Shown here: positions 4,063-55,595 of the stretch, one piece after another
Layout: every line of letters begins with the position of its first letter
Position numbering within the stretch: position 1 is the stretch's first letter
IMG/VR virus record: IMGVR_UViG_3300002835_000229
Coordinates: 1-57,309 of that record
DNA from: a virus
Length of the DNA stretch: 57,309 nt
Direction: 5' to 3' (one strand)
Translations under genes and position numbers: made by a program
The notes under the pieces: generated by a model
What the model was told of the DNA's origin: nothing
Databases searched by the model: none
What the model saw: only the letters and a program-made list of their open reading frames with translations

Positions 4063-4551
4063 ATGGCTGATTTATTAATGAAAATGCCAGTTCCGTACGA
4101 ACCCAAAAGACAGAACAGGTTTATTGTAAGGTTTCCTTCTAGTTTGGGTATTAATGAGTGGTTCGTTGAAAGTGCATCAAGGCCATCAATTAAAGTAGGT
4201 TCAACTGAAATTCAATTTTTAAACACATCAACTTACGTTGCTGGTAGATTTAACTGGGATCCAATTACGGTTAAGTTCCGTGACCCAATCGGTCCTTCAG
4301 CGTCACAAGCATTAATGGAATGGATGCGTCTATGTGCTGAGTCAGTTACTGGTCGTATGGGTTATGCAGCTGGTTACAAAAAGAATGTGGATCTAGAAAT
4401 GTTAGACCCAACAGGAGTAGTTGTTGAGAAATGGATTTTAGAAGGTACATTTATGACTGATCTTAACTTTGGGTCATTGTCTTATTCTCAAGATGCGTTG
4501 GCTGATATTTCGGCAACCCTAAGAATGGACCGTTGTATTTTAGTTTACTAA
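4063..4551 (+). CDS. Tail tube protein (T4 gp19-like)
   Basis: The 162-residue protein matches the T4 gp19 family in length and layout. The N-terminal PYEPKRQNRFIVRFP segment, the VESASRPSIK strand, the FNWDPITVKFRDPIG core and the C-terminal ISATLRMDRCIL strand are the typical tube-protomer pattern. It polymerises as stacked hexameric rings inside the sheath and forms the DNA channel. It is a single-gene unit: a TATTTAT element upstream and a strong terminator directly downstream suit high-level late expression. Confidence 0.93.
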   Translation: MADLLMKMPVPYEPKRQNRFIVRFPSSLGINEWFVESASRPSIKVGSTEIQFLNTSTYVAGRFNWDPITVKFRDPIGPSASQALMEWMRLCAESVTGRMGYAAGYKKNVDLEMLDPTGVVVEKWILEGTFMTDLNFGSLSYSQDALADISATLRMDRCILVY

Positions 4552-46527: not shown

Positions 46528-46743
46528 ATGCAACAACTAACTTTAAATAGTATCATAGGGTTAGTACCCCCATTTAGTGGATACGCTTGTGACGTTTACG
46601 GGAACCAATGTGAATATATTGGAACAATAACCTCAACACCAGTAACTATAACATTACCCCCACCTTTTGACATGGCCCCAACAATAGGGTTTAAATTAAT
46701 TGATTCTACTGGGTGTGAAAAATTTGAAATCTTAGATTGTTAG
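46528..46743 (+). CDS. Small fibre-cassette protein A (71 aa)
   Basis: Starts two bases after the adhesin stop. It is beta-rich, with four conserved features: a GLVPPF turn, YACD..G..CEYIG, a TLPPPF strand, and a C-terminal FKLIDSTGCEKFEILDC. The 73-residue gene at 54400 (-) has the same pattern (PFDVYVCD, C-Y-x-x-TI, LRVIDNNECQINEIL) and is clearly a paralog. Both stand directly upstream of a modular fibre cassette. The function is unknown; a fibre cap, chaperone or attachment module would fit. Confidence 0.7.
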   Translation: MQQLTLNSIIGLVPPFSGYACDVYGNQCEYIGTITSTPVTITLPPPFDMAPTIGFKLIDSTGCEKFEILDC

Positions 46744-46843: not shown

Positions 46844-47824
46844 ATGAAAGATATTGTATTTGTAACTGCACAACCTGACGTTCCATATTTTCATTGGCAG
46901 GTTAAATTATATGTTCATAATTTTATTGAGAAGGGAATTGACCCTAAAAAAATTCACGTAATTTTTGCTATGGTTCACGGATCAAAAGAACTAACAGAAG
47001 GAGCAAAAAAATTAATGGACTATGGTATTAATGTTCATTTTTTTGATGATAATAGAAGTAAAAATTTATATATACCTAGCATAAAACCTTATTTGATATT
47101 TAAGTGGTTAGAAAAAAATCCTGAATTAGGTAAATGTTTCTTTTTACACGATGCCGATATAATCTTTAATAAATTACCAAACTTTGATAGTTTATTAAGT
47201 GATGATATTAATTATTTATCAGACACAATAAGTTATATTGGATATGATTACATTATGGATTGTGGTAATAGATATGAAAAACAACATCCTTCATCTGAAA
47301 AAGGACAATTAATAAGTGAAATGGCAAACATAATTGGGATTGATGTTAACACAATAAAAGAAAATCAAGAAAATTCTGGGGGAGGACAATACCTTATAAA
47401 AAACACCGATTATAAACTGTGGGAAAAAATATACATTGATTCAACACCATTATATAATCAAATGTTAAGTTACCAAAAAAGATTCCCAATTAATCCAGGA
47501 CAAATACAGTTTTGGACTGCTGAAATGTGGTCCGTTTTATGGAATTTATGGTTACATAATCATAAAACAAAAATAACAAAAGAATTGGATTTTTCCTGGG
47601 CGACGGATAATGTTAATAGGTATAATTCTATGCCAATACTACATATGGCCGGAGTAACAGATGACCTAAAAGGAACTAAATTTTATAAAGGAGAATACAT
47701 TAATGTCGACCCAATAGAAAAATTAAGAGAAGATGAGAATTACTTTAATTATGTTGATAAAAATAGCTCAACAATAAAATATATTGAAGTAATGAAATCT
47801 TTTATTCAAAAAACTAAAATCTGA
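46844..47824 (+). CDS. Glycosyltransferase-like protein (GT-A, DxD)
   Basis: The 326-residue protein starts with a Rossmann-like strand (KDIVFVTAQPDVPYFHWQV), similar to the beginning of peptidyl-serine galactosyltransferases and hydroxyproline arabinosyltransferases. The metal-binding DxD is HDADIIF (D103, D105), preceded by IKPYLIFKWLEKNPE. It has no signal peptide or transmembrane segment, so it is a cytoplasmic enzyme. It sits inside the fibre block between genes rich in Thr/Pro linkers. I infer that it adds sugars to fibre proteins (perhaps to those linkers) or to another phage or host target; donor and acceptor are unknown. Confidence 0.75.
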   Translation: MKDIVFVTAQPDVPYFHWQVKLYVHNFIEKGIDPKKIHVIFAMVHGSKELTEGAKKLMDYGINVHFFDDNRSKNLYIPSIKPYLIFKWLEKNPELGKCFFLHDADIIFNKLPNFDSLLSDDINYLSDTISYIGYDYIMDCGNRYEKQHPSSEKGQLISEMANIIGIDVNTIKENQENSGGGQYLIKNTDYKLWEKIYIDSTPLYNQMLSYQKRFPINPGQIQFWTAEMWSVLWNLWLHNHKTKITKELDFSWATDNVNRYNSMPILHMAGVTDDLKGTKFYKGEYINVDPIEKLREDENYFNYVDKNSSTIKYIEVMKSFIQKTKI

Positions 47825-47837: not shown

Positions 47838-49616
47838 ATGGAAACTTGTTTTAAATTGCTTTCTTGTGATGGGTCTTATAATCCATTTAACTCTAATAAT
47901 CCTAATTTATCTGGGTATGTTGATACATTTATTACCATTGATTTATTAGGTCCTTTAACAGGAACCCCAGAAACCCAATTTTTAGTTAAAAATTTAGGTG
48001 AAATTGATTGTGTTACAGGACAAACTTTTAATATTATTAGTAGTGCCGAAACTTGTGATTGTCAGTGTTATATTTTTAAAACGCCCGAAGAACCAATATT
48101 AACCACATATGTTGATTGTGACTATAATTTGTTAGAGGTTTATTTACCTACAGGAAAAACAACAAACTTATGTAGTGTCATTAAACCAATTTTTGATATT
48201 GGAGATCCTTTACCAATAAAGTTAGGGGGAATATGTGTTAGTGGGGATTGTCCAAATTACGACATGCCTGTTACTATTGAACCCAGAAATGAATGTGACG
48301 TACTTACAATATTTCCTATGGGTGTTGATTGTATTATCCAAAATCCAACTAACGATAGAACATTTGACGGAGCGGCAGCATTATCAATTACCGGAGGAAC
48401 ACCACCTTATACGGTAATTTGGGATAGTGGAGGTATTGCACCAACAATATATAATTTAAATGCTGGTTCATACGGAGCAACCGTAACCGATTTTTATGGT
48501 GATTTTATTATTAACACAATTTGTGTTTTAACTGCCGAAACAACAACAACCACAACAAGTACAACAATAAAACCACCTATCGAATATAGTGATTTATGTG
48601 GAATTGCAACAATTAGAAGCAAAATAATCGGAGTACCCATTGACTATGTACAAATACAATTAGAACCTAATGGGGCAATTAACGGTAAAGAAAGTTGGAT
48701 ATCCCCAGACACCCAATATTTATTATCTTGGATTACCGGAGCAACAAACCAATGGGTTTTAACTGGATATCCATCACCATACATTAATATCGTAAACGCA
48801 AATCCGGCAACACCACCATTAACTGGATGGCAAGTATTAGGAGGAATAGAAGTTTATAATTTTACACTTATTAGTGGAGACTGTACAAGTGATAGTTTGG
48901 TAGGATTTAACTTAACCAAAAATGACCCTATTTGTGGTAATAGTGGAAGCATCCTTATCCAGGCTTATGGTGGAACTGGAATTTATGAATATTCAATTGA
49001 TAATGGGATTAATTATACCTCAAACCCTATGTTCCAGAATTTAGGTTCAGGATCATATGTTGTTTACGTGAAAGATTCTAATGGAGTTACATTTCTTCAA
49101 AATGTGTCATTAATACAACAACCAACAACAATTTATACAGTTGAATTAAACGTAAATACGGCAACAAATACATTTAGTATTAATTGTCCTTTATTATTAC
49201 CAGGAGACACATTAACGTTTAATTTAAATAATAATAGTAATTTACAATATTACCCTAACACTCTTTCACCAGTACCTTTATATAATAATGTTGTTACTAT
49301 AAATGGTTTTGGGCCAATGACTTTAGTAACAACAAACAATTCACAAAATGTTTTAAGTTTACCTTGTTCTATAACACCAATAACTCAATTACAACAAGTA
49401 AAAGCATATAGTAATCAAATAACATTAAGTTATGGTCAAACAATTACAGGTTCTTTTACCAATAGTTTAGTAAACTACTCACCTTTTGGTTATTGTGTGT
49501 TAGCACAAAAAAATTATCAATTATTTATGACAAATGCAAAAATTAATAATTGTAAGTGTTGTAGTGTTATTATAAAAAACCCACCGTTATCTACCCCTAT
49601 AATCGTAAAAAATTAA
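47838..49616 (+). CDS. Modular fibre protein with SprB-like units and Thr linker (592 aa)
   Basis: Layout: a Cys-rich N-terminal part (1-155), a SprB-like unit (~162-232, SITGGTPPYTVIWDSGG), a Thr-rich linker (~234-246), a module starting INGKESW with a later NQWVLTG (~252-355), a second SprB-like unit (~365-430, IYEYSIDNGINYTSNPMF), and a C-terminal beta domain with CKCC near the end. The NGK...W module is shared with the inverted fibre gene at 53025. It has neither enzyme motif nor membrane segment. It is probably a distal fibre or adhesin that recognises the host. Confidence 0.75.
   Translation: METCFKLLSCDGSYNPFNSNNPNLSGYVDTFITIDLLGPLTGTPETQFLVKNLGEIDCVTGQTFNIISSAETCDCQCYIFKTPEEPILTTYVDCDYNLLEVYLPTGKTTNLCSVIKPIFDIGDPLPIKLGGICVSGDCPNYDMPVTIEPRNECDVLTIFPMGVDCIIQNPTNDRTFDGAAALSITGGTPPYTVIWDSGGIAPTIYNLNAGSYGATVTDFYGDFIINTICVLTAETTTTTTSTTIKPPIEYSDLCGIATIRSKIIGVPIDYVQIQLEPNGAINGKESWISPDTQYLLSWITGATNQWVLTGYPSPYINIVNANPATPPLTGWQVLGGIEVYNFTLISGDCTSDSLVGFNLTKNDPICGNSGSILIQAYGGTGIYEYSIDNGINYTSNPMFQNLGSGSYVVYVKDSNGVTFLQNVSLIQQPTTIYTVELNVNTATNTFSINCPLLLPGDTLTFNLNNNSNLQYYPNTLSPVPLYNNVVTINGFGPMTLVTTNNSQNVLSLPCSITPITQLQQVKAYSNQITLSYGQTITGSFTNSLVNYSPFGYCVLAQKNYQLFMTNAKINNCKCCSVIIKNPPLSTPIIVKN
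48537..48570 (+). repeat. ACA-rich triplet tract (Thr linker)
   Basis: ACA/ACC codons encode TTTTTTSTTI between the first SprB-like unit and the NGK module. Confidence 0.7.
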
Positions 49617-49639: not shown

Positions 49640-52315
49640 ATGGCATATATAATAAAAAATACATCAGGATTAGTTAACACAAGAGTTACCGACGTTGGTA
49701 GACAGAAAATGTCCCAGGGTAACTTTAATATTTCTTATTTTCAAGTGGGGGATAGTGAGATATCATACGATAAACTACCAGCAACTTATAATCAGGCAAA
49801 TAGTTTTATTTTAGAACCTGGGTTTAATAGTCAAAATACTAGCGGAGCTCCCCAATCAAACAAACAATATGTTAAATACCCATATTATGCCGATTCAAAC
49901 CAAAGAAATACATATGGAATACCCTTTATGGACTCAACAATTGATCCGGTATTTAATCGAGCTCCTTTAAGAGGATTTTTTGGGGGAATAACAACCGCAA
50001 CAACAATAAATTGGGAAGTTTTAGTTGGGGATAATTATGTCCTTAGTTCTAATTATATGGTGGATATGTCAATGCTTAATGGGTCAAATCAAATTGAGTT
50101 AATATATTCTGGTTGTAATAGAACAAGTGAGACAACTCCACAAATTGGGGATATTATCACAATTTATTATGATGGGAATGCATTATTAAATTGTGAGTGT
50201 ATAAACTTACCAACACCAACCCCAACACCTTCAGTAAGTGTGTCCCCAACGGTAACTATGACCCCAACACCAACACCTTCACCAACAGATATTTGTGCGT
50301 CATCAACACCAACACCAACACCAACAAGAACTCCTTGTTTAACCCCAACACCAAGTCCTGAGTGTCCATTACCACCACCACCGGAGTGTTTTATGGGAAT
50401 GAATAGTTGTTATACTATTTTAACATATAGAATTATTGATGTTTGCGGTGATTTAATAACTTTAGATAGACCAACACCAGATTATACAAACTTACTTGTT
50501 ATGTGTTATTCAAGAGTATTAATATACCCTCAAAATATGACACAAATATATGATAGTATAACACCAGGACCACATTGGAGTGAACAAGTTATAAATTTTG
50601 AATCTATATGTGATACTGACCAGTTTGATGTTAAAGTTTGGAATATGAATATTCCTTGGACAGAAAATCCGGCAGGTTTAATCCCATCATTATTTGAGGA
50701 CTACACTAAATTTGGTTCTATTAATTATATAGGATCAAAAGAATATTTTGGATATAACTCAAGTTCTGGTCAAACAGATACTGATTATGTTTATTATTAT
50801 AATTCATTTGACGAAATTGTTCAGGTTAAACCGGAAGAACAAAAGGCAATTGCGATTATACATTATACTAATCAAACAATAGATTTTTTCTATGGTGAGA
50901 AATTTGCGTTAGAACCATATGATGTGACAAACCCAGAAGACACAACAGGTCAAGCAAGAAACTTTAAATTACATATTCCTTGGTTAATGTGGCATAAAAA
51001 TCCTGAATGTTGTTTTGGACAAACATTTTGGGTAGATCCTCCAGGGTTTGAAGACAAAGAATTATTTACGGTTCATTACCTCAAATCAACTAAGAATGAA
51101 GATATGAACCAACCTGGTATGAGATATTACCATTTATGGGACACAAACCCTAATTCAGATGGAATCCCAAGTAGAATAGGTAAAGTTTTCCCTGACAGTA
51201 AGTTGGTTATTATTGATGATGAAGAAATAATTGCCGCAATGTCTTATAAATCAAATAGAAACTGGACGTTACCGGCACCTCAAGTATCATTAATAACACC
51301 AAATACTTGTGATACCACAACATCGGCAACTGGAATCCTAACAGGAAATTCAGAGACAATGTTTATAACATATAGATTAACTAATGACAATGAATTTACA
51401 AATTCATTGCATTGTAATTACTATTCAAAAGTTATTGGTAATAATAATGATTGTAATCCGGATACTTCTAAAAATATTGCAATTAGATTTGGTCCTGAGT
51501 TTGGATGTTTAGTCCAACCAGTTCATAATCATATAACAACTACAACCACAACAATACCAGTTTGTCAAAGATATGAAATCATTAATAATGGTGATAAAGG
51601 TGTGATCGTAACGTTTACGCCTTGTTGTGATGAAACAAAAACATCACCACTATCATTACCCGGATCGACAGGAACACAACTTTGCTCAAGCACCGATATT
51701 GACCCAATTTCATCCGCGGTGACAATAACCAATTTAGGTGATTGTCCTTCGTGTATTACAACTACAACAACAACATTTTGTCCTACATGTGAGGTACCTT
51801 TAGGTTTTTATGGTAATAGATTTGAAATATTAGCACAAAAAGTTGTAACAGGAACTAGACCAGATTCCACAAAATGGAAAGTCATTGATTTTACTCCACT
51901 TATTAGCGGAACCTCAATTAATGGATACTTAACTCAAAATGGTATTACTGGTAGTACTTTTATAATATCAAATGAGAATTATAATGTCGCACCTTACTAT
52001 AATTTAAATACATTCATCCCATTAACACCTAACGGTAATGTTGGAGCAAAATTAAACTTTGGTGATGAATATTATTTTTATGGAGCTTTTGAAACAGATA
52101 TACAGGCAACAATATATGAAATGAAATATAAAATTAATTTAAGTTCTAGTGAATTCCAGGTATCAACAAACCCATCTTGGACTCAAGGGACTACATCATA
52201 TGTTACTGAAATTGCGTTATTGGATGAAAATAAAGATATATTAGTTATGTCAAAACTACAATCACCAACAATAAGACAAGGTACCCAACAATACGTGATT
52301 AAAATAGATTTATAA
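49640..52315 (+). CDS. Tail fibre-type protein with Pro/Thr linkers (891 aa)
   Basis: The first 40 residues (TRVTDVGRQKMSQGNF, then YFQVGDSEI) resemble the start of tail-collar fibre proteins (LTxxGxxKxxxG...hxVGD), a domain that attaches a fibre to the baseplate. Residues ~190-240 are a TPTP linker. The middle (~260-630) is a large domain of unknown family with conserved-looking HYTNQTIDFFYGEKF. Two Thr runs (~632, ~705) flank a Cys-bounded module (CQRYEIINNGDKG ... CSSTD), which is repeated at the end of the - strand fibre gene. The C-terminal ~170 residues are a beta domain. It is likely the fibre shaft with exchangeable modules. Confidence 0.75.
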   Translation: MAYIIKNTSGLVNTRVTDVGRQKMSQGNFNISYFQVGDSEISYDKLPATYNQANSFILEPGFNSQNTSGAPQSNKQYVKYPYYADSNQRNTYGIPFMDSTIDPVFNRAPLRGFFGGITTATTINWEVLVGDNYVLSSNYMVDMSMLNGSNQIELIYSGCNRTSETTPQIGDIITIYYDGNALLNCECINLPTPTPTPSVSVSPTVTMTPTPTPSPTDICASSTPTPTPTRTPCLTPTPSPECPLPPPPECFMGMNSCYTILTYRIIDVCGDLITLDRPTPDYTNLLVMCYSRVLIYPQNMTQIYDSITPGPHWSEQVINFESICDTDQFDVKVWNMNIPWTENPAGLIPSLFEDYTKFGSINYIGSKEYFGYNSSSGQTDTDYVYYYNSFDEIVQVKPEEQKAIAIIHYTNQTIDFFYGEKFALEPYDVTNPEDTTGQARNFKLHIPWLMWHKNPECCFGQTFWVDPPGFEDKELFTVHYLKSTKNEDMNQPGMRYYHLWDTNPNSDGIPSRIGKVFPDSKLVIIDDEEIIAAMSYKSNRNWTLPAPQVSLITPNTCDTTTSATGILTGNSETMFITYRLTNDNEFTNSLHCNYYSKVIGNNNDCNPDTSKNIAIRFGPEFGCLVQPVHNHITTTTTTIPVCQRYEIINNGDKGVIVTFTPCCDETKTSPLSLPGSTGTQLCSSTDIDPISSAVTITNLGDCPSCITTTTTTFCPTCEVPLGFYGNRFEILAQKVVTGTRPDSTKWKVIDFTPLISGTSINGYLTQNGITGSTFIISNENYNVAPYYNLNTFIPLTPNGNVGAKLNFGDEYYFYGAFETDIQATIYEMKYKINLSSSEFQVSTNPSWTQGTTSYVTEIALLDENKDILVMSKLQSPTIRQGTQQYVIKIDL
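50209..50360 (+). repeat. CCAACA repeat coding TPTP linker
   Basis: Imperfect CCAACA/CCAACC hexamers encode TPTPTP tracts broken by SVSVSPTVTM, DICASS and RTPCL. The same linker type is on the - strand at 53911-54069. Confidence 0.8.
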
Positions 52316-52363: not shown

Positions 52364-52969
52364 ATGGCAAAAACTATGAAAAATTCACCAAAAGTTTTAG
52401 GGTTAGATATTTCCACAAAAACAATTGGATGGGCTTTATTTGATATTAAAACCCAAGAGTTATTAGAATTAACTCACATATCACCAAGACCTAAAATGGG
52501 TAATGAAGTAGATAAACTAAAAGAGTTATTATTAAAATCAGAAATATTTGCCGAAAAAGTTAAACAATATGTTGGTTTAGGTATAGTAAAAGTAATTATT
52601 GAAGAACCACTACTTAACTCAAATAATGTTTATACCATACAAACCCTTTTAAGATTTAATAGTTTTATATTCAAAGAAATATATAATATTTTAGGTATTA
52701 TTCCTGAATTTGTCTCAACATATAACGCTAGAAAATTTGCTTTCCCAGAATTAGTACAAGAAAATGATAAGAAAAAATTTGTCCTATTTGGGGGATTACC
52801 AAAAGACATTGATAAAAAAATGATTATTTGGGAAAAGGTTGCAAAAAGAGAACCCCAAATTACGTGGAGTTATACCAGAAATAATACATTAAAAAAGGAA
52901 AATTTTGACCAAACAGATGCTTACGCTTGTGTTTTAGGGTTTATGAGAAATAATAATATATGGGAATAA
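52364..52969 (+). CDS. RuvC-like Holliday junction resolvase (RNase H fold)
   Basis: The 201-residue protein has the four acidic residues of the RuvC/RNase H fold in order: VLGLDISTKTIGWALFD (D15), VKVIIEEPLL (E80/E81), and the C-terminal DQTDAYACVLGF (D182, D185). It would cut branched DNA made during recombination and before packaging. T4 uses an unrelated endonuclease (gp49) for this. A CATTTAT sequence lies upstream, one base off the TATTTAT element. It is the last + strand gene before the inverted fibre cassette. Confidence 0.82.
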   Translation: MAKTMKNSPKVLGLDISTKTIGWALFDIKTQELLELTHISPRPKMGNEVDKLKELLLKSEIFAEKVKQYVGLGIVKVIIEEPLLNSNNVYTIQTLLRFNSFIFKEIYNILGIIPEFVSTYNARKFAFPELVQENDKKKFVLFGGLPKDIDKKMIIWEKVAKREPQITWSYTRNNTLKKENFDQTDAYACVLGFMRNNNIWE

Positions 52970-52994
52970 TATTGGTTTAAACATCAATAATTTA

Positions 52995-53026
52995 AAATAC
53001 CATCTTTTTAGGTGGTATTTTTTTTT
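52995..53026 (+). terminator. Bidirectional intrinsic terminator between convergent genes
   Basis: A 10-bp stem (AAATACCATC 52995-53004, GGTGGTATTT 53011-53020, one T-G pair) has a T-run on the + strand (to 53026) and A-rich sequence on the other side, so it can serve the RuvC-like gene and the opposing fibre gene. Confidence 0.85.
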
Positions 53027-54398
53027 AACCACAAATATTACCTGTTGGTGTGATTTGTAATGAAGGGTTGTACCCAATAGGGATCGTTGACGAACATATT
53101 ATTAAACTTTGGTATGATTGTATCATACCGTCAATTGGTGGTTTATCCCCACAAATTGTATATTGGTATTCCTGTGATGTAGCAGCTTGATTCACCAAAA
53201 GATATTCCGTTATAATACAAGGAGATATGGTTGTTGTTGTTGTGGTTGTTGGTGTTGGAGACGGGCAAGGAACACTTAGTAATGTTGTGTTAAAATTTAA
53301 GTCAAAACAATCTACGGATGGATTGGTATTTAAAACAATAACCCACTCTAATGTGGTACCTATTGGAAGTACGCTGTCTATTTCTAAATAAGCCCCTAAG
53401 ATATTTGTTGTAGTTTCAGTTGCATTCCATCGACCATTGATATTATCCCAATAAATGTTATAAATGTACTGCGGTGAAATAGGGAATGGAAAACTCCATG
53501 TGTATGATAATTTTCCATTTATAAATGTGCCAGGATTAACATTTACAGTTCCACATTCAGAATTCATAATTAAACATTCTAAAATTGGATCGGGAGTTGG
53601 AGTAATACAATCTAAACAAGCTCCTTGATTAAACGGACCAATTAATCCTACAATTTGTATGTTGTCAATACCACTTATATTGTCGACTAAACCCTCAAAT
53701 GTTGCACAAATACCAATACCGTTAATGTATGTACTATACACGTATCCTTCACTAATTGTATTTCCTGATGAATCAAGTAAAATTTGTGTGGTGTAATATT
53801 CTAAACCAGTAAAACAATCAACAAACTTTTTAGTGTTACCACACCTCATATATTCGTCAAAAATATTAAAATTAACTATTCCATTAATATCACAAGGTCT
53901 TGTAACTTCAGGTGAAGGAGTTGGTGTTGGGGTATTTGTTGGAGTAGGAGTTGGGGTGTACCCAGTTATCATAACATCAATAAGAAATCCACCACAAGGA
54001 TTTGATGTGGTTGGTGTTGGTGTTGGCGTTGGGGTTGGAGTATTTGTTGGTGTTGGTGTTGGAGTTTGGGAAACTAAACAATTAAAAATTGCGTTAAAAT
54101 CAAAAGAATCACATGCCGATGTTGTTGTTGTGGTTGTTGTCGGACATAACCCACTAAAAAAAAACCCTGAATCTAAGTCAGGAAAAGTGGAACCAACACC
54201 AGATGGACCAAATTGGTCACAAGTACCCCCCAAACTTAAAGATAAACACCAAGAATCTTCAGTTAATGAATAATATATAAAATATCCATTAGTTAAACCT
54301 GTAAAATAATTATATCCATTATATGTAAGAGATAAATTATATTCACCATCATAAGATTGACTCGTATTAAAAATACAATAGTTTTCGTCAGTGGCCAT
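53025..54398 (-). CDS. Inverted modular fibre protein with TPTP/Thr linkers (457 aa)
   Basis: One of only two genes on the - strand. Layout: an N-terminal module (~18-85, YNGYNYF ... IYYSLTEDSWCLS), a Thr run (~87-93), two TPTP linkers (~112-130, 148-163), a Cys-bounded domain (~169-264), an NGK...W module (~293-365, YNIYWDNINGRW), a second Thr run (~382-390), and a final Cys-bounded module (CIITEYLLVNQ ... CSSTIP). The NGK module matches the gene at 47838 and the last module matches the one in the 49640 gene. It is therefore a mosaic of the + strand fibre region. It may be a fibre or a decoration protein. Confidence 0.78.
   Translation of the reverse strand: MATDENYCIFNTSQSYDGEYNLSLTYNGYNYFTGLTNGYFIYYSLTEDSWCLSLSLGGTCDQFGPSGVGSTFPDLDSGFFFSGLCPTTTTTTTSACDSFDFNAIFNCLVSQTPTPTPTNTPTPTPTPTPTTSNPCGGFLIDVMITGYTPTPTPTNTPTPTPSPEVTRPCDINGIVNFNIFDEYMRCGNTKKFVDCFTGLEYYTTQILLDSSGNTISEGYVYSTYINGIGICATFEGLVDNISGIDNIQIVGLIGPFNQGACLDCITPTPDPILECLIMNSECGTVNVNPGTFINGKLSYTWSFPFPISPQYIYNIYWDNINGRWNATETTTNILGAYLEIDSVLPIGTTLEWVIVLNTNPSVDCFDLNFNTTLLSVPCPSPTPTTTTTTTISPCIITEYLLVNQAATSQEYQYTICGDKPPIDGMIQSYQSLIICSSTIPIGYNPSLQITPTGNICG
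53911..54069 (-). repeat. TPTP-coding hexamer repeats on the - strand
   Basis: Two CCAACA-type tracts (53911-53961 and 54007-54069 on the + strand as GGTGTT/GGAGTT) encode TPTP linkers around CGGFLIDVMITGY. They also create a long spurious Val/Gly reading frame on the + strand. Confidence 0.8.
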
Positions 54399-54399
54399 A

Positions 54400-54621
54400 T
54401 TATATTGTTAAAATCTCATTTATTTGACATTCATTATTATCAATAACCCTCAAATTAAATTCTGTTGAGTTTGCATAAATAATTGGAACCTCAAACGTGT
54501 AAGGTAAATCTCCGGAATTTATTGTTGACACATAAACACAAGATGTCATACCTGTATCACACACGTAAACATCAAATGGTGTTGAACCTGAAATATCGTT
54601 TATTGTTATATCTATTGGCAT
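54400..54621 (-). CDS. Small fibre-cassette protein B (73 aa), paralog of 46528 gene
   Basis: First gene of the inverted cassette; its stop is one base from the next start. It shares with the 71-residue + strand gene the PF-x-x-Y-x-CD, C-x-Y-(I/V)-x-TI and (L/I)ID-x-x-x-C-x-x-x-EIL features at the same spacing. No known family. Co-occurrence of this small gene with a modular fibre gene in both cassettes suggests a common function, such as a fold-assisting or attachment module. Confidence 0.72.
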   Translation of the reverse strand: MPIDITINDISGSTPFDVYVCDTGMTSCVYVSTINSGDLPYTFEVPIIYANSTEFNLRVIDNNECQINEILTI

Positions 54622-54627
54622 ACTACA

Positions 54628-54634
54628 ATAAATA
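54628..54634 (-). promoter_or_regulatory. TATTTAT element (- strand) upstream of inverted fibre cassette
   Basis: ATAAATA on the + strand, i.e. TATTTAT read on the - strand, ending 6 bases before the - strand start codon at 54621. Confidence 0.42.
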
Positions 54635-54659
54635 TAGAACTTTATAAAAACTTCTGTAG

Positions 54660-54695: not shown

Positions 54696-55595
54696 ATGGA
54701 AGAAAACGAAGCGTTAGTCGAATTATTAGAGGAAATTTTAGGTGATCATGGACTACACTACGGTAACCGAGGACAAATATCGTTCAACTGCCCAGTTTGT
54801 GATGACGATATGAACAAACATAATTTAGAAATAAATTATATAAGTAATGTTTATAAATGTTGGAGTTGTGGTGATGTTGAAGGTACTCATGGACCTTTGG
54901 GAAAATTATTTGATAAATTTGGGAACAAAAAACAAAAAAAACTTTATTATATATTAAAACCAGAAACTGCGCCCATAAAAGAAAAAAAATACAAAAAATT
55001 AAAGTTACCGGAAAGTTTTACATTATTTAAAGATTCACATAAGATTTATCCAATTAGAAGACAAGCATATAATTACTTACAGAGTCGTGGAATAACAGAT
55101 GAGATGATTGAAAAATATGGTATTGGTTTTTGTGATAAAGGAAATCATGTGGGTAGAATTGTCGTACCTTCTTATGATATAAATGGTGAGTTAAATTATT
55201 ACGTTGCTCGTAGTTGGGATTCACATACTAAATTTAAATACAAAAATCCTGAGGCGGAAAAAGACAAAATAATATTTAACGAAAAGTTAATTAATTGGGA
55301 TAATGATATCTACTTGGTTGAGGGTGTGTTTGACGGATTTTTCCTGGACAACTCAATACCAATGTTAGGAAAACATATGTCCGAAATGTTATTTGATAAA
55401 GTTTATAATAACGCAAAGGGAAATGTTATAATTGCATTGGACGGGGATGCGTGGAATAACGCAATTAAACTTTACCACGAATTAAATGGTGGTAACTTAT
55501 ATGAAAAAATAAAAATAGTGAAATTACCTAAAGACCAAGATGTGTGTGATTTGAGAGGTAATATAAATGAATATTTTATAGAAATAAAAGATTAA
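54696..55595 (+). CDS. DNA primase (DnaG-type, Zn finger plus TOPRIM)
   Basis: A 299-residue primase. The zinc ribbon is C32/C35 (NCPVC) and C55/C58 (CWSC). The TOPRIM core has E209 in YLVEGVFDGF and D249/D251 in VIIALDGDAW. Between them a DnaG-like basic region (SRGITDEMIEKYGIGFC, GRIVVPSYD) precedes the catalytic part. It lays down RNA primers and would work with the helicase at 24725. It is compact compared with bacterial DnaG (about 580) and near T4 gp61 (342). It overlaps the next gene (TAATG). Confidence 0.92.
   Translation: MEENEALVELLEEILGDHGLHYGNRGQISFNCPVCDDDMNKHNLEINYISNVYKCWSCGDVEGTHGPLGKLFDKFGNKKQKKLYYILKPETAPIKEKKYKKLKLPESFTLFKDSHKIYPIRRQAYNYLQSRGITDEMIEKYGIGFCDKGNHVGRIVVPSYDINGELNYYVARSWDSHTKFKYKNPEAEKDKIIFNEKLINWDNDIYLVEGVFDGFFLDNSIPMLGKHMSEMLFDKVYNNAKGNVIIALDGDAWNNAIKLYHELNGGNLYEKIKIVKLPKDQDVCDLRGNINEYFIEIKD

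What the first reader, a model, noticed from the sequence alone, without database searches (positions are those of the whole stretch)
53025..54621. Inverted second fibre cassette that is a mosaic of the + strand fibre region
The only - strand genes form a two-gene unit: a 73-aa protein paralogous to the 71-aa gene at 46528, then a fibre protein whose NGK...W module matches the 47838 gene and whose last Cys-bounded module (after a Thr run) matches one inside the 49640 gene. It has its own TATTTAT element and a bidirectional terminator. The same combination (small gene plus modular fibre) therefore exists twice in opposite directions, which suggests duplication, inversion and module exchange to vary host recognition.
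Basis: partly seen in the sequence, partly recalled or inferred. Interest (0 to 1): 0.75.

Follow-up and report, generated by a model that had tools for sequence, protein, structure and literature searches.

The report
Inverted modular adhesin cassette, shuffled modules
In a family of large uncultured lake viruses, probably of Bacteroidota bacteria, a two-gene unit for a probable host-binding protein sits backwards in the genome; it was flipped once long ago and has stayed so, while its end pieces keep being swapped at threonine/proline-rich joints, a clear case of a virus re-tooling its probable host-recognition proteins.

Summary
The two - strand genes are real (73 aa, 54400-54621; 457 aa, 53025-54398). 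The small gene is a clear paralogue of the 46528 gene (BLASTP 1e-7). Both module matches are real but visible only with profiles. The 47838 'NGK' module matches the N-terminal module of the inverted protein best (9e-13), its NGK module more weakly; the last Cys module matches the 49640 insert (hhalign 96%). Leader element and convergent terminator recur in relatives.

Interpretation partly supported. Inversion: yes, one ancient switch (tree support 98/93), present in all 79 assessable contigs of the window's subgroup. Fresh duplication with inversion: no. Sister lineages carry the same paralogues side by side on the + strand. Further rearrangements moved neighbouring fibre genes (L026, L018/19, L023, L037). 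Module exchange: yes, mostly at Thr/Pro-rich linkers; the window's NGK module is 81% identical to L087's, while the neighbouring modules are 34-60%. No sign of a switch: no orientation polymorphism, serine invertase, DGR reverse transcriptase or flanking inverted repeats.

Best reading: a second late-transcribed, modular receptor-binding (adhesin) unit of a T4-like phage, diversified by recombination at linkers. New variant of known tail-fibre mosaicism. Receptor binding is inferred, not shown.

The parts
54400..54621 (-). small gene (73 aa), first gene of the inverted cassette; orthologous at this place in the whole clade, paralogue of 46528
53025..54398 (-). modular adhesin-like protein (457 aa), second gene of the inverted cassette
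54138..54383 (-). conserved core module 1 (residues 6-87), distant homologue of the NGK-type module of 47838
   Evidence: HMM 9e-13 from the 47838 module; in all intact homologues
53607..53906 (-). conserved core module 3 (residues 165-264), diagnostic of this protein family
   Evidence: 31 HMM hits, none in the other window proteins below E=0.1
53265..53546 (-). exchangeable NGK...W module (residues 285-378)
   Evidence: patchy among relatives; 81% identical to the L087/L088/L090 module against 47-60% for the core and 34% for the last module
53028..53222 (-). last Cys-bounded module (residues 393-457), the commonest tail module of the family
   Evidence: HMM and hhalign; largest tail-module family
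54628..54636 (-). TATATTTAT element upstream of the small gene, candidate late promoter
52994..53021 (.). hairpin between the convergent RuvC-like and fibre genes, candidate bidirectional terminator
46528..46743 (+). + strand small gene (71 aa), paralogue of 54400
47838..49616 (+). + strand modular protein with SprB repeats; NGK-type module at about 48657-48884
49640..52315 (+). + strand modular protein; Pro/Thr linkers at about 50209-50365; Cys module inserted in a Thr linker at about 51563-51775
52364..52969 (+). RuvC-like resolvase gene bounding the cassette (conserved flank)
   Evidence: PHROG 159, 1.8e-7
54696..55595 (+). DNA primase gene bounding the cassette (conserved flank)
   Evidence: PHROG 47, 3.5e-40

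Best explanation
The cassette is a second, separately transcribed adhesin unit of a T4-like myovirus whose host is probably a freshwater member of the Bacteroidota. It makes a small beta-rich-looking protein and a fibre-like protein built of a conserved N-terminal core plus exchangeable tail modules joined by Thr/Pro-rich linkers. SHOWN by sequence: (1) the unit is a long-established part of the genome, between the RuvC-like and primase genes on the - strand in the whole clade; (2) in the nearest outgroups the same gene family is on the + strand inside the fibre cluster, so one early inversion or inverted relocation put it in its present place; (3) later, neighbouring fibre genes changed strand in single lineages, with breakpoints inside the same cluster; (4) tail modules are gained, lost and replaced, mostly at the linkers, both in this gene and in the + strand fibre genes, and related modules occur on both strands. 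INFERRED: the TATTTAT element is a late promoter and the hairpin a terminator, so the unit is expressed late and independently; the proteins sit on the virion and bind host surface structures; the exchanges are made by the phage's T4-type recombination system (UvsX-like, gp46/47-like, SSB genes present) acting on the repetitive linker DNA, perhaps helped by HNH endonucleases found next to the cassette in some relatives.
For: Gene orders in 54 primase loci and 80 RuvC loci: -CORE in 79 of 79 assessable contigs, the 80th (L119) ending just after RuvC. Tree: inverted state needs one change, support 98/93, 0 of 500 shuffles as low. + strand homologues in L039, L044, L063 (and core3 alone in L043, L057). 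Strand of the 46528-type gene relative to 49640 differs between lineages, and L026 has all of them on one strand opposite to primase. Module inserts at the Thr linker of 49640; 64% of indel flanks are T/P/S-rich against 7% of background positions; L028 vs L029: flanking genes 90-97% identical (small54 99%) but fibre 371 vs 746 aa, the PKD + DUF285 extension joined at a PT linker. NGK block near 90% nt identity to L087, dropping to 58% or less at the linker. 76 distinct cassette proteins, 31 tail-module families. Leader element in nearly every inverted cassette and not before the 46528-type genes. Baseplate wedge genes upstream, recombination genes present.
Against: No Pfam or PHROG family names the 457-aa protein itself; virion location and receptor binding are untested. 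Structure prediction failed and was then switched off. The left edge of the NGK exchange block is gradual (identity rises from 67 to 88% over about 40 residues), not a clean linker junction. Three of the most frequent indel contexts in 49640 are not T/P-rich, although they are where the linker is missing altogether. A direct + to - transfer inside one genome is only indirect: the L019 insert matches - strand proteins at 39%.
Confidence: 0.72

Rival explanations
1. The cassette is a recent duplicate of the + strand small-gene/fibre unit, pasted in inverted orientation.
For: Small genes and modules are paralogous between the two strands.
Against: The small54 and small46 families form separate groups, and core1 and the 47838 module form separate groups that both include + strand genes of outgroup phages; outgroups have the paralogues in tandem on the + strand; paralogue identity is only about 33%.
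Confidence: 0.07
2. It is an invertible (phase-variable) segment that a site-specific recombinase flips to switch host range, as the Gin/G-segment system of phage Mu does.
For: Opposite orientation to neighbours; imperfect inverted DNA repeats between + and - linkers in most cassette loci and none in outgroups; contigs of several relatives end inside or next to the cassette.
Against: Same orientation in all contigs, including the near-identical contig groups from different samples; no serine resolvase/invertase (PF00239) in 23 records other than the window, and no tyrosine recombinase above its cut-off in 12; no inverted repeats flanking the unit. The records are partial and assembly keeps only the majority form.
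Confidence: 0.05
3. Variation of the tail comes from a diversity-generating retroelement rather than recombination.
For: Variable C-termini in a presumed receptor-binding protein.
Against: No reverse transcriptase (PF00078) in 14 records up to 296 kb; variation consists of whole modules and indels, not point substitutions in one repeat.
Confidence: 0.02
4. The proteins are capsid decoration (Hoc-like) or general adhesion proteins that stick to mucus, polysaccharide or particles rather than host-specific receptor-binding fibres.
For: PKD, SprB and DUF285 modules are generic adhesion modules; weak PHROG Hoc-like match in 47838 (0.058) and a virion structural (head) PHROG match of 44216 (1.1e-5).
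Against: Position downstream of baseplate wedge genes, next to YadA-head and S74-tailspike-like genes in relatives.
Confidence: 0.2

Closest known systems
Tail-fibre mosaicism of T4-related phages (genes 34-38; reviewed in PMC2993671)
   Same: T4-type baseplate and recombination genes; fibre genes are the most mosaic part of the genome; homing endonuclease genes unequally distributed even between close relatives.
   Different: No sequence match to gp34-38; modules joined by Thr/Pro-rich linkers; the fibre cluster is split between both strands with a convergent second unit.
Repeat-mediated module inversions in Campylobacter group II phages CP21/CP220 (PMC4546147)
   Same: Related phages differ by inversion of segments, attributed to recombination between repeats; homing endonucleases and transposases nearby.
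   Different: There, dedicated intergenic repeat regions and 28-55 kb modules; here small gene blocks and low-complexity linker coding DNA as the candidate homology (not proven as the breakpoint).
Invertible tail-fibre segments (Mu G segment with Gin; from general knowledge)
   Same: Fibre genes in opposite orientation to their neighbours.
   Different: No invertase, no flanking crossover sites, orientation fixed in the clade.
Freshwater Bacteroidetes-infecting bS21 large phages (PMC9723584)
   Same: Large myoviruses of lakes; some relatives here carry Ribosomal_S21 matches.
   Different: That paper reports no fibre analysis; S21 was not found in the window, and identity of the lineages was not tested.

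Membership tests
T4-like myovirus fibre region | T4-type baseplate and tail genes in the same genome | tested here: met
   baseplate wedge, baseplate hub and tail tube PHROGs at 4063, 4652, 28200, 28749
T4-like myovirus fibre region | sequence homology to gp34-gp38 fibre families | tested here: not met
   no PHROG or Pfam fibre family for 53025, 47838 or 49640
T4-like myovirus fibre region | protein present on the tail of the virion | not testable with these tools
   needs proteomics or microscopy
Invertible fibre segment (Mu/Gin type) | DNA invertase gene of the serine recombinase family | tested here: not met
   PF00239 absent from the window and 23 other partial records
Invertible fibre segment (Mu/Gin type) | inverted crossover sites flanking the segment | tested here: not met
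   only one weak 19-nt pair, internal to the fibre gene
Invertible fibre segment (Mu/Gin type) | both orientations in one population | tested here: inconclusive
   contigs all one way, but reads were not available
Diversity-generating retroelement | reverse transcriptase gene | tested here: not met
   PF00078 absent from 14 partial records
Linker-shuffled modular adhesin | unrelated modules interchange at homologous linker positions | tested here: met

The most novel reading that the evidence does not exclude
The convergent layout itself drives diversification: low-complexity linker DNA lying in inverted orientation on the two sides lets the phage recombination machinery exchange or invert fibre blocks, with breaks supplied by HNH homing endonucleases at the cassette border (found there in L026, L028 and L037, two of which have rearranged fibre blocks), a recombinase-free diversification system for adhesins.
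Probability: 0.12. Interest if true: 0.65.

Novelty: new variant of a known kind. Interest (0 to 1): 0.42.

Why it matters
It gives an unusually clear natural record, across more than 100 contigs, of how a group of abundant uncultured lake phages rearranges its probable host-binding proteins: which parts are constant (core and flanks), where breaks fall (Thr/Pro linkers) and how often blocks flip. It offers defined modules that can be tested one by one for host binding, and it shows that two-gene units on opposite strands can look like inverted duplicates when they are older paralogues parted by an inversion.

Tried and rejected
Pairwise BLASTP of the named modules: not significant, replaced by profiles. 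Search of cultured phages with the 457-aa and 891-aa proteins: no match. Site-specific inversion, DGR: no recombinase, RT or flanking repeats. PDB sequence search with the small and NGK-type profiles: only chance-level matches. Contig ends inside the cassette as a sign of population heterogeneity: seen, but not clearly above expectation, so not used. Linker type (Thr run or Pro-Thr) compared between cassette and 49640 proteins as a sign of intragenomic gene conversion: loosely similar but confounded by kinship, not used. Literature: no paper found on Pro-Thr linkers in tail fibres.

Full report
WHAT IS THERE. The window is a 57-kb fragment of a virus record with T4-type tail tube, baseplate hub and wedge genes and T4-type recombination and replication genes (UvsX-like, exonuclease, SSB, DnaB-like helicase). 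Its primase is nearest, at 33%, to Flavobacterium phage immuto, which with the SprB repeats suggests, but does not show, a Bacteroidota host.

CHECK OF THE SIMILARITIES. The 73-aa and 71-aa proteins are paralogues (E=1e-7; alignment with six invariant columns across 27 members). The module matches fail with plain BLASTP but hold with profiles built from relatives. A refinement: the 47838 module matches the N-terminal core module of the inverted protein (9e-13) better than its NGK module (0.03). The last Cys module matches the module inserted in 49640 by profile-profile comparison (96%; unrelated pairs under 1%).

RELATIVES. Nine viral contigs carried relatives of the fibre protein and 54 carried the primase. 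In the clade that includes the window the order is + RuvC, - fibre, - small, + primase. A second sample of 80 contigs picked by the RuvC gene gave the same arrangement in every contig that reaches far enough: 79, with L119 ending just after RuvC. The sample was limited to the 80 best of 334 RuvC matches. A tree of RuvC plus primase needs one change for the inverted state (25 of 37 rows, support 98/93). In outgroups L039, L044 and L063 the same family (core1 and core3) is a + strand gene of 915-1074 aa, followed by small-type genes, the 47838-type gene, the 49640-type gene, RuvC and primase, all +. So small-gene and module paralogy predates the inversion (trees; these trees are of short sequences and were drawn without support values).

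FURTHER REARRANGEMENTS. The 46528-type small gene is on the same strand as 49640 in most lineages, but on the strand of the cassette in L018/L019, L023 and L037. In L026 the RuvC, 49640, 47838, 46528-type, fibre and small genes are all on one strand opposite to primase, with the 41217 homologue on the primase strand beyond them. These orders can be linked by single inversions with different inner breakpoints; that path is an inference. Breakpoints were not mapped at base level.

MODULE EXCHANGE. In 49640 homologues a Thr-run linker holds no insert in many phages and different Cys modules in others: one copy in the window, two in L003, two identical copies in L020, another type in L019, others in L015/16 and L023. 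Flanks of indels of 15 aa or more are T/P/S-rich in 64% of cases against 7% of positions (pairs of related sequences are not independent). L028 and L029 have flanking genes 90-97% identical (small54 99%), yet their fibre proteins are 371 and 746 aa, the extra PKD and DUF285 part following a PT linker. Among 76 distinct cassette proteins there are 31 tail-module families; tail architecture is shared by 35-39% of pairs at 85-94% RuvC identity and by about 80% at 95% or more (family counts depend on the masking and BLAST cut-offs used, and some pairs with equal lengths differ only through masking). The window's NGK module is 81% identical to that of L087, L088 and L090, while core modules are 47-60% and the last module 34%. 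At codon level identity is near 90% inside the module and falls to 58% or less across the Thr/Pro linker on its right; the left edge is gradual. Modules of the 49640 insert type also occur in 44216-type and 47838-type genes. The L019 insert in its + strand 49640 gene finds its only other relatives in the - strand proteins of L018/L019 (39%, 8e-7), indirect evidence for movement across strands.

EXPRESSION SIGNALS. TATTTAT is enriched just upstream of window gene starts (9 of 34 vs 0.4 expected). TATATTTAT stands upstream of the small gene in nearly every inverted cassette but not upstream of the 46528-type genes. Reading it as a late promoter rests on likeness in position and AT-richness to T4 late promoters (general knowledge). 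The convergent hairpin is present with varying stems in most cassette loci.

RIVALS. A recent inverted duplication conflicts with the outgroup orders. A phase switch conflicts with the uniform orientation and the lack of an invertase and crossover sites, though records are partial and reads were not available. A DGR lacks its reverse transcriptase.

VERDICT. The system is a new variant of known tail-fibre mosaicism: an old, fixed, convergent second adhesin unit with modules exchanged largely at Thr/Pro linkers. Interest 0.42.

Noticed in passing
L028:5229-5918, L026:9234-9977, L037:9236-9982: HNH-type ORFs (Pfam HNH at 0.0019 for L028; L026 and L037 by eye only) sit between the small gene and the primase in three lineages, two of them with rearranged fibre blocks; L003:4375-4932 has a similar ORF near the primase.
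   Followed up: partly
L037:3654-6504, L011:208-1530, L007:15235-16500: Genes at or near the place of the + strand small gene encode YadA-head repeats (L037, Pfam 1e-13) or look like S74-chaperone tailspikes (L011, L007; by eye), so this whole stretch is a variable adhesin region.
   Followed up: partly
G020, G001, G002, G003, G004, G012: The small-gene domain also occurs elsewhere in relatives' genomes, often at the start of long open frames (103-731 aa), so it may be an N-terminal adaptor domain used by several fibre-like proteins.
   Followed up: no
L091:10661-19275: The inverted cassette is expanded: two further - strand ORFs (394 and 1163 aa) lie between the core gene and the small gene.
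   Followed up: no
window 46844-47824: 326-aa protein, PHROG 4417 (1.8e-70, unknown function), glycosyltransferase-like by eye (DxD-type motif), in the middle of the fibre cluster and conserved in most relatives.
   Followed up: no
L010, L013, L021, L025, L027, L078, L109, L125, L127, L132, L140: Many contigs end inside or beside the cassette, which may reflect linker repeats or population heterogeneity in assemblies.
   Followed up: partly
L020:2961-5888: The Cys module of the 49640-type protein is present as two tandem copies with identical protein sequence, suggesting a recent duplication.
   Followed up: partly
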